DNA of 64,000 bases, from contig NC_092562.1 of the NCBI RefSeq assembly GCF_037975245.1, positions 27,044,054 through 27,108,053 on the forward strand, written 5' to 3'. Source of the stretch: Apostichopus japonicus. Its lineage: Eukaryota > Echinodermata > Holothuroidea > Aspidochirotida > Stichopodidae. Shown here piece after piece: positions 12,301-21,300 of this stretch; the stretch's first letter is position 1; every line of letters starts with the position of its first letter. The notes under the pieces are model-generated. The model worked only from the letters and a program-made list of their open reading frames with translations, searched no databases and had not been told where the DNA came from. The position numbers were made by a program, and so were the translations under genes.

Positions 12301-15300
12301 CAAACGGAATATTTTGCTGTGAGAGATACTTTAGATAATGACAACGATACCATCTAAAGTACTTGACAACAGTGGTAGTGCCCTAAATTCATCAACTTAT
12401 AGCTCACATTGGTCGACCACTGGAGTCTTGGGTCACCTGTGATCCTTGCATGCTATTGTGACTGAGTTAATGATAAAAATCACCTAACTACTATATCTGC
12501 AGATCAAAGGTTGACCTTAGAAGTCCTTAGCTATACAGATAGACATAACTGACAGAATAAGGGCTTAAGCAAGTATTTCTTGCGGCCAAAATTTGTTAAT
12601 ATTACTGCTATAACATGAAAACCCTTAAGTGACACGTATTCGGCAATGTAAAGTCAAAGCAGCTAGTAAAAGATTGCTCTACAAATCACATATCAGTGTA
12701 CAAAGCATGTGGTTTGATTACTATGTAGCACAACCCAAAGAGGTTCAGTCTTCTATAGGCACATATAATGAACATTTTACTGACTGGTGTTACTATGGTG
12801 TTACATATAATGCGATAAACCTTAGTTCTACTTTCATGAGTATTTAAGCTGTCCATCGTAACATATTTCTAAAGTTTAATATTTCTATTGGGATGTTTGT
12901 TGTACTAAAGCTACATCTGAAGCCTGCACCAGTGCCTTAATTGCTAGTGTCTTGTGGATGGAATCTTGCATATCTGTTAGCTCTGGCAGCTCATTCTTCC
13001 CATTGTTTTACACTTACTTGGTAACAATGATAGGAATCTGGACTTGTCTGCCTCTTCTGGAAGAACTTCATTAGCTTTCTTCAACCTTTTGTCAAATTTC
13101 GCTAAAAGCTGGGATGAAAAAAATGTTAATGCTATAATTTTTCTGGAAACTGGAAACTGGAAAATGAAAATACAGCAAATTATGGTGAACCAGGTTATCA
13201 ATCTTCCCCTTGCTACAACCAATTAAATTTCCAGACCTCTGACATCTCTTAATGTCTGTTATTATATTGTAAAAATTTTATATGTTAGAGAAAAAATATG
13301 CACTGCATGCTGGTTAAAATAAAACATCATGGATAAAATGAAGAATTAAGAACAATGCAGTTAATGATGAATAAAATGAGAATACAGTGTCTGATCTTTG
13401 TTCAAAGTATTATATTTGACTGTTCATGTGCTGAGTGGTGATTTTTGTACTCACAGAATATTCCCTGACAAGTTTCTCCCGGTTGTCATGGATACTAAAT
13501 GATGCAATATTTTTTGCTGATATCACAGTATCTCCACTCAGATAAAATTCCAAGAGACATTCATGTAGAAATCTGAATTGAGCCTGTCAACAAAGCAATA
13601 TGCCAACACTATATGATACTAAAATATCGCATATATATATATATATATATATATATATATATATATATATATATATATATATATATATATACATATATAC
13701 ATATATATATACATATATATATATATATATATATATATATTTATATATATATATATATATATATATATATATTTATATATATATATATATATATATATAT
13801 ATATATATATATATATATATATATATATATATATATATATAGACATGTCTGATGGCGTGTGTTGGAAAGTTAAGAATATCCACAAGAAAAAAATGGAAAA
13901 AAATGATACTTTCATTTCCAACTTTATTACTTAGAACGTTAAATAGGTAACAAAATATTTCGAGCGTTTACACGGCTCTTCTTCAGTTGTGCTAATGAAA
14001 TGGAAGAAACTAGACCTTATTGGTATTTAGCTTAGCATGTATGCTCATAAAAGAGAGATCCCTGTTGAGCCCATTGTTGTGTGTATTGAGGCGTAAGATG
14101 GTTTTTAGTTCCCGGTTGCTTCTTTCATGAGCGGTTTTGAAGAAGCAGTATTAGTCCGGCAGCCAAGGGGGGTAACCCTAAAATCTCTGATATAGTTTTT
14201 TTCTCTGCTGATTATTACTCTTTGGGGTGTATAAAATGAGATCTGGGGTGGTGTGGACCGGTCACCTTTGAGCATTTTTAAATATTCAAAATGGCGTCCA
14301 AGATGGCCGCCGTAAAGGTCTAGAATAAAAAAATTCATATTATTCCAATCTGTTTGCCATAAAGCAAATATATTTTGGCCAAAATTTATGTTCTTGGGTT
14401 AAATGAAATTAATAAAAAGGGTCTGAGAAGTACTTGGAGTACCGTTGCTATGGTAACTATCTACATGCCTTCCAATAAGCCGGTAAAAGGCGGTAAAATT
14501 GACACAAAAACATCCATTGAAGTATGAGTAACATTCTTTGTATTTCCTAGGTTTATAAAATTGACGACATTAAACTCAATAAAAACTATGAATGAAGATT
14601 TTATGTTGTCATAGTAACCACTTTTTAATAGCTTCCACAACGACCGCTTTGATGGCCGAACTAAACGAACTACCATAACATATCACACGATTAACAACAA
14701 CGAAAGACACACAAATGTTCATGTGTGGAAAACAGTCTAATATATAAAGCTGCCAGAGGAGTCAAGATGTATCCACATTTTCACAGCACTGTTCAGGGTA
14801 GATTGTAAGTATTAACTTACAGGCATTTCAGTTTAGAGTAGTGTCATTATATTACAGTTCTGACACTTTATGTGTCTTTTGGTATTTGCTGATGGGTACT
14901 CTTTGTGTATTCTTTAAAGCCCATGGGTCTACAGTTGAAAGACATCTAATCAATTTCATCATCGTCGTCTGCCTGTTGAGCCTGCTTTGTTCTTTCATTG
15001 AAACATACCTGCCCACCCTGGCATGCACAGAATACTGAACATGCAAGGTTTGCACTGTTGCAACCACATCTTTGTGTTTTGCAGGGCATCTCACTACTGC
15101 ATGAACATCTAATGAGTTTCAATAGATCATCTGGTGCTAGGGGGGTATCACTGGGAAGAGTTTTTGGGAAAGGTGTTTTGGAACCAGCTTCATGTGACCA
15201 TCCGAATGCAGTTTGATCCATTCTTGGTGGATCTGGTTGAAGTGCATTTCTCCAGACTGCCACTTGAAGATGAGCCCGGGCAACATTCTCCTTAAATGCC

Positions 15301-18300: not shown

Positions 18301-21300
18301 CGATAGTCGTACATATGACCAACAACTTTCTTTGAGTCCCCCAGAAGTACTCCAAGTGCCACTTGTGGAGGAGTTGGATTGTTTGTTATCACGTCTGTGA
18401 TAATGTTGGCAATCAACAGCGCTGGTAAGGTTGTATCCAACTTTGAGGACAGAGCAGCCAGTAACCTCATCACTGTACTAGACGCGTACTCAGCAGCAAC
18501 ATCCTTATTGATGTGCACTTGGTACTTTGACTTGTCATAGGATAAAGACTTGCACTCCTTCACTACATGCTTGGCCAAAACGCTAACGTTACTCTCAATG
18601 TCATCATTCTCTTCATCGTCCTTAACCATCTTCAGCATCAGGGCAGCATTCTTGTGGAATGCAATTAAGCTGGCATAACCAGGAGTTGAAAGGACAACAA
18701 GTTCATTACCAAAGTACTTTCGCAACTCCTTTATGAGACGGACGCGTGTGAGTGCACACCCGTGACTATCCTGGTATTCCTTGAAGAGTTCAACTGAGTT
18801 CCAAATTCGACTTCTGTCGGCCTGTAGGGTTTCTATCACAAACTGCAGGGCTTTGTCTGTCTCTGGCTGTTCGGTTGTGCCTTTTTCATCCTCTAAACGG
18901 CACCGGTTGCTCACAAATAAGCTCATGAGGTCCTTATGGAAGCGAGCATCAACTGCATGCAAGTCACTGACAGCACCTTCAATGCGACTTTGGACTTCAT
19001 TTGCCCAGTGGTCGTTACGAGAGTGACATTTTTCAAGTAGATATTCTTTGTAGGGCTTATCACAGTGTACACTATGAGTTGAACGACACAGGTAGGCTGG
19101 TCTCCATCTTTGAGGATTCTTTGGATTCTTGTTTATTTCACAGGCTTGGCCACAGTACAGGCAATGGAGCATGAAGTCAAACACTGACAATAAGCGTTGT
19201 AGTCTTTTGGCTGGCGGGGCACTCACATTGTTCTTATACTTGGCAAGGTTGGTTTTTGATGTATACCGAGACACACAGTTTCTGTGGTAATAAATCTTCA
19301 AGTACTCGTTTTCAGCAAGCTGTGTTTCAAGATCTACATGCAAAGTGTCCCCATAAACTTTGCTCGCATTGACAATCGTTTCTATTCGTGCCAGACCAAA
19401 AGTCTCTGAGAGCGTTGCATTCTCGTTACACTCAGTGCCATACTTGAACATAAAGCCGCAGCCCTGCTCCATGGTTTAGCTCTACATTAAAACAAAGAAC
19501 AGCAGTATTAATGTTACACTTGCAATTCTGTTGAAATTACAGTTTCGTGAGGCCAATTAGTGTGCCAGGGTGATTACGCTTGAAAAGAGATCAACAGTTT
19601 TCGTAAAATTCCTTGTCAGCCTTTCCTTCTATGAAATAAACGAATGAATAAATAATAACTTCTTCCACATGGAAGCCTAACACCACACTAAGTCAATGAG
19701 ACATCTAGCTAAGCCTAACCATATGTTTATTCGCTGAAATTGTGACGCAGTTATAAGATATCCATGGAATACTTTCTTTATTGCTGTTATCTTCGACCAC
19801 GTGGTTGCCTAACACCACACTAAGTCAATGGGTAATCTAGCCTAACCATCTGTTTATTAGCTGAAATTGTGACGCAGTTATAAGATATCCATGGAAAGCT
19901 TTCGTTATTGCTGTTATCTTCGACCACACGGTTGCCTAACACCACACTAAGTCAATGGGTAATCTAGCCTAGCCATCTGTTTATTAGCTGAAATTGTGAC
20001 GCAGTTATAAGATATCCATGGAATGCTTCGTTATTGCTGTTATCTTCGACCACATGGTAGCTTAACACCACACTAAGTCAACGGGAAATCTGCCTAACCA
20101 TCGGTTTGCAATTTTTTTGAAAAATCACACTCCCTAAACACCATCAAATACTGAGATGTCCGCTGCCTTGAAACAGATTATAATCAAACACTTAAAAATC
20201 TTTGTAATTTGATGAATGTAAGTTAAAATGGTAACATTATTTTTAGAACTTCCTACATGGAGTAGAGATAGAATTCCGCTGCAATCAATGTCTGCAGGAC
20301 AGAAAACTTGACAATGCACAGAGAGCTGAATAGGTCACTACTGTTACAATGAAACTGTATGAGTGGAGAATGTATTACATTTTGGGTTATATCATTTTTT
20401 CTGGAGGTAAGTGATGAAGCTAGGATGGTACAAAATAAAGGGGGATGATCTATACACAGCTAAAGGAGGGGTATTTTTCAACAACTCTGAATTAAGAGTT
20501 AGAAACTGTTTTACTGCGATCAAATATAAACGGCTTGTGTAATCTTATCTTAAACATTTTAACATCAGCATTGTCTTTTTAAATGGTTAGTGGTTACCAT
20601 GGTAACAAGAAATTGTTACTCGTCAAACCTTATTCCATACCTTAGGATCATTAGCATATTCCTAAGAAACAATAAATGTTTTTCCAACATTTTCTGGGAA
20701 TAAAGGCTGTTTTGCCATTGTTTCTGGCTTTTACTGACTAAATGGTAGCCATATTGATAGTTGCCATAGCAACGGTACATCTATTTGCTCTAAAACCATT
20801 TTCATCAAAATTGTTGGACCCAAAAACATATGACTAGACCAAAAAATTATTGATCTGTGGCAAAAAACTTAGAAATAATGTTATTTTGTATTTTCGCACT
20901 TTATGGCGGCCATCTTGGACGCCATTTTGAATATTTCAAAATGCTCAAGGGTTACAGGTCCACACCACCCTAGATCTCATTATATACACCCCAAAGAGAA
21001 ATATTCAGCAGAGAAAAAAACTATATCAGAGATTTTGGGGTTAGGGTCAAATTTGGCCTTTGGCTGCCGGACTATATAGAATGACAAATTTGAGGTCAGA
21101 TAAGTTGTGATTGGGGAGATTAAAATGTTCGGCAACAGGGAAACCTGGGTTATTATTGCGGATACTTAGTTTGTGATTATTGAAGCGGAGTCTGAACTTT
21201 GTGCTGGTTTCGCCAATATAGGTGACCTGGGGGCACTTGCAACAATACAGCAGGTAGATGACATTGGCTGAGTCGCAACCAAATCTACCAGGTCTCAGAG

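What the first reader, a model, noticed from the sequence alone, without database searches (positions are those of the whole stretch)
14152..21074. Full-length Academ-like DNA transposon with transposase, XPG-like nuclease and CXC-like tail in one spliced gene
Seen: ends TAGTCCGGCAGCC in inverted orientation, TIRs of 300-490 bp, TAT flanks, one two-exon gene with a Cys cluster, DDE-like motifs (LTLDQQLY ... [14 protein letters not shown]), EEAD/VVADDTD/GLTGCDT nuclease motifs and a CSCSS...C-rich tail. Known: Academ transposons have 3-4-bp target duplications and encode an XPG nuclease. Inference: this is an Academ or close sister lineage. The C-terminal CXC-like cysteine region and the internal 128-bp array are less familiar parts.
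Basis: partly seen in the sequence, partly recalled or inferred. Interest (0 to 1): 0.85.

Follow-up and report, generated by a model that had tools for sequence, protein, structure and literature searches.

The report
Academ-type DNA transposon, tail cut off
This is a 6.9-kb animal "jumping gene" that landed inside another mobile element and codes for a transposase joined to a DNA-trimming nuclease; it looks like a member of a known kind, and in this copy a stop codon cuts off its cysteine-rich tail.

Summary
The element is real and its ends are exact: 14152-21074, TIRs aligning over 367/373 bp, 3-bp TAT target duplication. It sits in a Penelope-like retroelement. Of eleven other copies of that retroelement fetched, ten could be read at the junction; all ten are uninterrupted, seven with exactly one TAT. 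One minus-strand gene (129-nt intron) encodes a probable DDE transposase (D432, D604, E809) fused to a FEN/XPG-like nuclease; the acids are conserved in eleven related proteins of the same genome. In the two related families whose ends were read, ends are TAG..CTA and all five duplications read are 3 bp. The CXC-like tail is shared by relatives, so it is not unusual. Best reading: a new member of the AcademX kind (3-4-bp duplications plus nuclease, PMC10045372, passages). No Academ reference sequence could be compared, and the XPG link rests on motifs plus borderline profile hits to EXO1 (best E 0.085). Ordinary but well anchored. Host probably Apostichopus japonicus (inference).

The parts
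14152..21074 (.). whole transposon, 6,923 bp
   Evidence: ends, TIRs and empty sites
14149..14151 (.). left copy of the 3-bp target duplication TAT
21075..21077 (.). right copy of the 3-bp target duplication TAT
14152..14518 (+). left TIR (367 bp aligned)
   Evidence: local alignment score 324 against at most 97 in 200 random pairs
20702..21074 (-). right TIR (373 bp aligned)
16225..19472 (-). exon 1: N-terminal Cys cluster, DDE-like transposase core (D432 at 18179-18177, D604 at 17663-17661, E809 at 17048-17046) and start of the nuclease (D1041, D1082)
   Evidence: triad assigned by pattern, inference
16096..16224 (-). intron, GTGAGT..TTTCAG, 129 nt
   Evidence: not seen in transcripts
15387..16095 (-). 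exon 2 up to the stop: rest of FEN/XPG-like nuclease (E1177, E1178, D1180, D1201, D1203, D1261)
15384..15386 (-). in-frame TAG, codon 1320
   Evidence: sense codon in 8 of 8 relatives that cover the position and in the decayed C16 copy
14946..15383 (-). tail beyond the stop, same frame, 145 codons; cysteine-rich CXC-like stretch at about 14997-15107
   Evidence: no Pfam match for the window tail itself
19665..20107 (.). tandem array, period 127, 3.5 copies, upstream of the gene
14284..14295 (+). ATTCAAAATGGC, inward-facing in the left TIR, shared with TIRs of a related family (weak lead)
20921..20932 (-). ATTCAAAATGGC, inward-facing in the right TIR (weak lead)

Best explanation
A DDE cut-and-paste DNA transposon of the AcademX kind, full length in its ends, inserted into a copy of a Penelope-like retroelement. 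Shown: exact ends, 3-bp target duplication with empty sites elsewhere in the genome, a gene whose DDE-like and FEN/XPG-like acids are conserved, related elements with the same protein layout, TAG..CTA ends and 3-bp duplications. Inferred: the protein binds the long TIRs, the DDE site cuts and joins with a 3-bp stagger, the nuclease trims flaps or gaps at the ends during excision or repair, and the CXC tail adds DNA binding. As it stands this copy codes for a protein that ends after the nuclease, so it is probably defective or helped by other copies.
For: Ten of ten readable other copies of the target retroelement are uninterrupted, seven with exactly one TAT; removing the element and one TAT restores the retroelement frame, removing 0 or 4 bp does not. 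Two related families: duplications ATG, TGA, ATA and GGA, ACA with TAG..CTA ends. D432, D604, D1041, D1082, D1180, D1201, D1203, D1261 conserved in every row with a letter there (11 or 12 rows), E809 10 of 12. Nuclease profile finds only EXO1 in the PDB. AcademX described with 3 or 4 bp duplications and a nuclease (PMC10045372, passages).
Against: No Academ sequence could be compared. The nuclease hits to EXO1 are borderline (best E 0.085; no single stretch significant by itself), Pfam finds no XPG in any of the 10 nuclease rows, and the XPG_I search of the genome lists none of these loci. The transposase profile matches nothing in the PDB and Pfam only DUF6589 below its cut-off. Structure predictions failed.
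Confidence: 0.8

Rival explanations
1. A sister superfamily close to but outside Academ, with the same combination of transposase, FEN-like nuclease and CXC tail.
For: No Academ reference compared; the window protein is on a long branch even among its relatives (2.47 changes per column, best identity 26%); Pfam has no named transposase family for it.
Against: The two features given for AcademX in print, 3-4-bp duplication and a nuclease, are both present.
Confidence: 0.15
2. The TAG is not a defect: the tail is made by stop read-through or by splicing around the stop.
For: The frame stays open for 145 codons beyond the stop and residues conserved among relatives are kept there.
Against: 8 of 8 relatives that cover the position and the decayed C16 copy have a sense codon there. 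A recent nonsense mutation explains the open frame as well. I did not search for splice sites around the stop.
Confidence: 0.08
3. Another known superfamily with similar parts: Zisupton/KDZ or EnSpm/CACTA.
For: KDZ and CMC transposases are also large and cysteine-rich (recalled); EnSpm also makes 3-bp duplications (passage of PMC12730594).
Against: Zisupton makes 8-bp duplications and EnSpm ends in CAC..GTG; here 3 bp and TAG..CTA. No Cys is among the columns conserved at 90% or more between D604 and E809, against the C(2)C motif given for the CACTA group.
Confidence: 0.03

Closest known systems
AcademX lineage of the Academ superfamily
   Same: 3-bp duplication (3 or 4 in AcademX) and a nuclease encoded with the transposase (PMC10045372, passages). 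Curated bivalve Academ consensus elements average 5,565 bp (PMC10294476, passages), comparable in size.
   Different: This copy has a stop before its tail. Whether published Academ proteins carry the same tail is recalled only (a cysteine finger), not seen in any call.
AcademH
   Same: Same superfamily by name if this is Academ.
   Different: AcademH makes 9 or 10 bp duplications and encodes a helicase; here 3 bp, and no helicase appeared among Pfam matches.
EXO1/FEN1/XPG nucleases
   Same: Order of acidic motifs VFD..S-K..R, E-E-x-D, D-T-D, G-C-D; nuclease profile finds four chain sequences, all EXO1 (E 0.085 to 0.39).
   Different: Below significance by Pfam; fused to a transposase; EXO1 itself is not part of a transposon.
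TCR/CXC domain (LIN54, tesmin/TSO1)
   Same: Whole-protein profile matches LIN54, E 6.2e-4; two relatives pass Pfam's cut-off (30.9 and 25.3 bits against 23.5).
   Different: The window's own tail gives no Pfam match at E <= 1, and two further relatives are below the cut-off.

Membership tests
AcademX | 3-4-bp target duplication | tested here: met
   TAT by empty sites; five duplications of 3 bp in two related families
AcademX | nuclease encoded with the transposase | tested here: met
   acid motifs conserved; EXO1 the only PDB match of the profile, borderline E 0.085; fold not confirmed
AcademX | transposase homologous to Academ reference proteins | not testable with these tools
   no Academ sequence held; PMC7165386 not held
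AcademH | 9-10-bp duplication | tested here: not met
   3 bp
AcademH | helicase domain | tested here: not met
   no helicase among Pfam matches of the window protein or the alignment members
Zisupton | 8-bp duplication | tested here: not met
   3 bp; 8 bp stated in a passage of PMC12730594
EnSpm/CACTA | CAC..GTG ends | tested here: not met
   TAG..CTA; CAC ends stated
EnSpm/CACTA and kin | C(2)C motif between second D and last E | tested here: not met
   no conserved Cys among the columns at 90% or more between 604 and 809
FEN1/XPG superfamily | Pfam XPG match | tested here: not met
   none in 10 nuclease rows at E <= 10; genome search with XPG_I lists four other places
FEN1/XPG superfamily | set and order of acidic active-site motifs | tested here: met
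   which motif is which is recalled knowledge
FEN1/XPG superfamily | fold | tested here: inconclusive
   single-sequence model of exon 2, mean pLDDT 33
TCR/CXC domain (PF03638) | score over the curated cut-off | tested here: inconclusive
   met by two relatives (L041, L057), not by L043 or L054, no match for the window tail

The most novel reading that the evidence does not exclude
The CXC tail is a LIN54-like DNA reader that recognises ATTCAAAATGGC (holding TTCAAA, an instance of TTYRAA), which lies inward-facing about 130-165 bp from both ends in two families whose proteins are only about 28% identical; the transposon would thus use a fold known from cell-cycle regulators to find its own ends, with the FEN-like domain trimming the ends that are exposed.
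Probability: 0.08. Interest if true: 0.6.

Novelty: new member of a known kind. Interest (0 to 1): 0.3.

Why it matters
It is a well-bounded animal Academ-type element with an empty-site proof, set among several related families in one genome. One of these families has two copies 99.98% identical over 8.4 kb with a single 1,572-aa frame that holds transposase, nuclease and CXC tail. That makes the open question of what a FEN/XPG-like nuclease does in cut-and-paste transposition testable with a natural set of proteins. For this copy the correction matters: its tail lies beyond a stop.

Tried and rejected
Viral contigs were scanned five times: with the exon-1 protein, an exon-2 protein, two motif patterns and a 50-aa nuclease piece; no relative was confirmed. 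The three loci from one pattern (L001-L003) showed at best E 0.74 and 1.8 with the window protein and were dropped. One scan of genome contigs with a 50-aa transposase piece gave 93 pattern matches and no relative. Phage records with the exon-2 piece: no match. Structure predictions of two window pieces were unusable (mean pLDDT 35.4 and 33.0), so no fold search was run. Pfam names that hit single members weakly (RGS, Gly_radical, Aminopep, TEDC1, NRF, AvrD, SUKH_5 and others) were dropped as chance. Zisupton and CACTA were rejected on tested features.

Results against the novel case: TTYRAA is denser in the TIRs of the window element (5.0 per kb both sides) and of the C9 family (5.0 and 12.5) than in the window at large (2.9), but in the C8 family it is not (2.5). 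The shared 12-mer is weak: 9 of 300 random pairs share 12 bases or more with the window TIRs, and the C8 family shares a different 12-mer with them. The tree joins the window with C20 and C15c at high support, but the tool flags this as a long-branch join that may be false, so I draw nothing from it.

Papers: passages only of PMC10045372, PMC4455052, PMC9587614, PMC10799480, PMC12730594, PMC9783078, PMC9004415, PMC10294476 and PMC10344927; other papers were seen only in listings. PMC7165386, the paper on AcademH, is not held. In one search none of the 8 listed of 17 papers holds 'Academ'; the other 9 were not listed, so I claim no absence from print.

Full report
What is there. The window holds a 6,923-bp element at 14152-21074. 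Its ends are TAGTCCGGCAGCC in inverted orientation. The TIRs align over 367 and 373 bp with local score 324; the best of 200 random pairs from the window scored 97. Both flanks are TAT.

Target duplication. The element interrupts the end of a GIY-YIG region that follows a reverse-transcriptase fragment on the minus strand (RVT_1 E 0.0048, GIY-YIG E 0.0031, both below Pfam's cut-offs); I call it Penelope-like from that combination (recalled). Removing the element and one TAT restores the frame to its end; removing no base leaves a stop, and removing 4 bp shifts the frame. The right flank searched in the window's own genome gave 40 matches; 12 became loci, one of them the window itself. Of the 11 others, 10 could be read at the junction: all 10 are uninterrupted, 7 with exactly GTAT|AGAATG, 3 (L061, L069, L070) with small changes at the junction; L065 lacked the exact anchor. 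The protein end was looked at in 5 of them and matches the joined flanks. So the duplication is 3 bp. In their longest alignments these copies are 95-99% identical to the joined flanks, so the insertion is not ancient.

Gene. On the minus strand an ATG at 19472 opens a frame; a GTGAGT..TTTCAG intron of 129 nt (16224-16096) joins exon 1 to exon 2. The frame then meets TAG at 15384-15386, codon 1320; in the same frame 145 codons beyond it code for the cysteine-rich tail. In 8 of 8 relatives that cover the position the codon is a sense codon, and so it is in a decayed copy of the same element on C16, which has other stops. I read the TAG as private to this copy; read-through cannot be excluded.

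Copies of this element. The left TIR finds five places: the two ends of the element itself, both ends of a copy on C16 and one end on C17. The C16 copy has duplication ATT, lacks most of the gene and holds two stretches of foreign sequence, one of which looks like a piggyBac transposase (name recalled, no scan run); its colinear parts are 86-91% identical. Its left end starts with C where the window has T. The C17 copy is truncated and decayed; its main parts are 88-97% identical.

Relatives. The 1,083-aa query gives 66 matches in the genome, a lower bound, since 42 of 165 candidates were scored. Three copies on C9, C2 and C16 (28% protein identity to the window) are elements of 6,432-6,451 bp, 98.7-99.2% identical to one another, with TIRs of about 382 bp, ends TAGACTGG..CCAGTCTA and duplications ATG, TGA and ATA. 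Another family on C8 and C18 is 99.98% identical over 8,392 aligned bases, with ends TAGAC..GTCTA and duplications GGA and ACA; a further copy on C19 was read at its left end only. Its 1,572-aa frame holds transposase, nuclease and CXC tail without a stop.

Catalytic sites. In an alignment of 12 proteins (window plus 11, two of which, C9a and C9c, are near-identical), D432 and D435 are conserved in 11 of 11, D604 and D805 in 12 of 12, E809 in 10 of 12, with the two others (C9a, C9c) showing an E one place on, beside a gap. In the nuclease D1041, D1082, D1180, D1201 and D1203 are 12 of 12, E1178 11 of 12, E1177 10 of 12 and D1261 11 of 11. That D432, D604 and E809 are the DDE triad is inference from pattern.

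Family evidence. For the transposase Pfam gives only DUF6589, below its cut-off (E 0.014; 5 of 9 core sequences at E <= 1, best 0.0012). A PDB search with the transposase profile finds nothing at E <= 10. The nuclease profile finds four chain sequences, all EXO1, E 0.085 to 0.39; the two aligned stretches, around VFD..S-K..R and G-C-D..G..K, are not significant one by one. Pfam finds no XPG in the 10 nuclease rows. The whole-protein profile finds LIN54's CXC domain (E 6.2e-4) and EXO1 (E 2). Pfam's CXC model is over its cut-off in two relatives, below it in two others and absent for the window tail. Structure predictions failed.

Filing. Passages of PMC10045372 give AcademX duplications of 3 or 4 bp and a nuclease, AcademH 9 or 10 bp and a helicase. 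The element meets both AcademX points. Zisupton (8 bp) and EnSpm (CAC ends) are excluded by tested features (their features from passages). No Academ sequence could be compared, so membership is likely, not shown. That published Academ proteins carry an XPG domain and a cysteine finger is recalled.

How it may work. Shown: ends, 3-bp stagger, the protein layout in relatives, conserved acids. Inferred: DDE cut and paste, trimming by the nuclease, DNA binding by the tail. TTCAAAATGGC lies inward-facing in both TIRs of the window element and of the three C9/C2/C16 copies and nowhere else in the window; with 9 of 300 random pairs sharing 12 or more bases, this is a weak lead.

Host. The genome has 671,581,487 bases in 35 contigs; contig lengths seen run from 18.2 to 46.0 Mb. 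Passages of PMC10344927 describe Apostichopus japonicus with 671.6 Mb, 34 scaffolds and 23 chromosomes of 18.21 to 46.02 Mb. The match is close, not exact; the host name is inference.

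Noticed in passing
window 13968-14151 and 21075-22311, minus strand: A Penelope-like retroelement (RT fragment and GIY-YIG region) is split by the transposon; other copies in the genome are 95-99% identical to its joined flanks.
   Followed up: yes
L043:1346-1445 (C8 copy of the 8.4-kb related family): That copy sits inside a 5S rRNA gene, duplication GGA; an intact 5S gene lies upstream at L043:511-629. The C18 and C19 copies were not seen next to 5S sequence by eye; no test for target preference was made.
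   Followed up: partly
window 14284-14295 and 20921-20932; C9a, C2b, C16b elements: ATTCAAAATGGC inward-facing in the TIRs of two families with about 28% identical proteins; weak statistics.
   Followed up: partly
window 31002-31048 +: Histone 3' UTR stem-loop match at the gathering score (34.2 against 34 bits), the only Rfam hit in the window.
   Followed up: no
L045:443-525: A long hairpin inside the C8 family element resembles mir-7131 below the gathering score (39.5 against 74 bits); probably just an inverted repeat.
   Followed up: no
C16:18270862-18274783, inside the C16 copy: Foreign stretch with a 235-aa frame that looks like a piggyBac transposase (name recalled, not scanned).
   Followed up: no
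Pfam PF20231 (DUF6589): This family of unknown function weakly matches several transposases of this group, below cut-off, so DUF6589 may itself be a transposase family.
   Followed up: no
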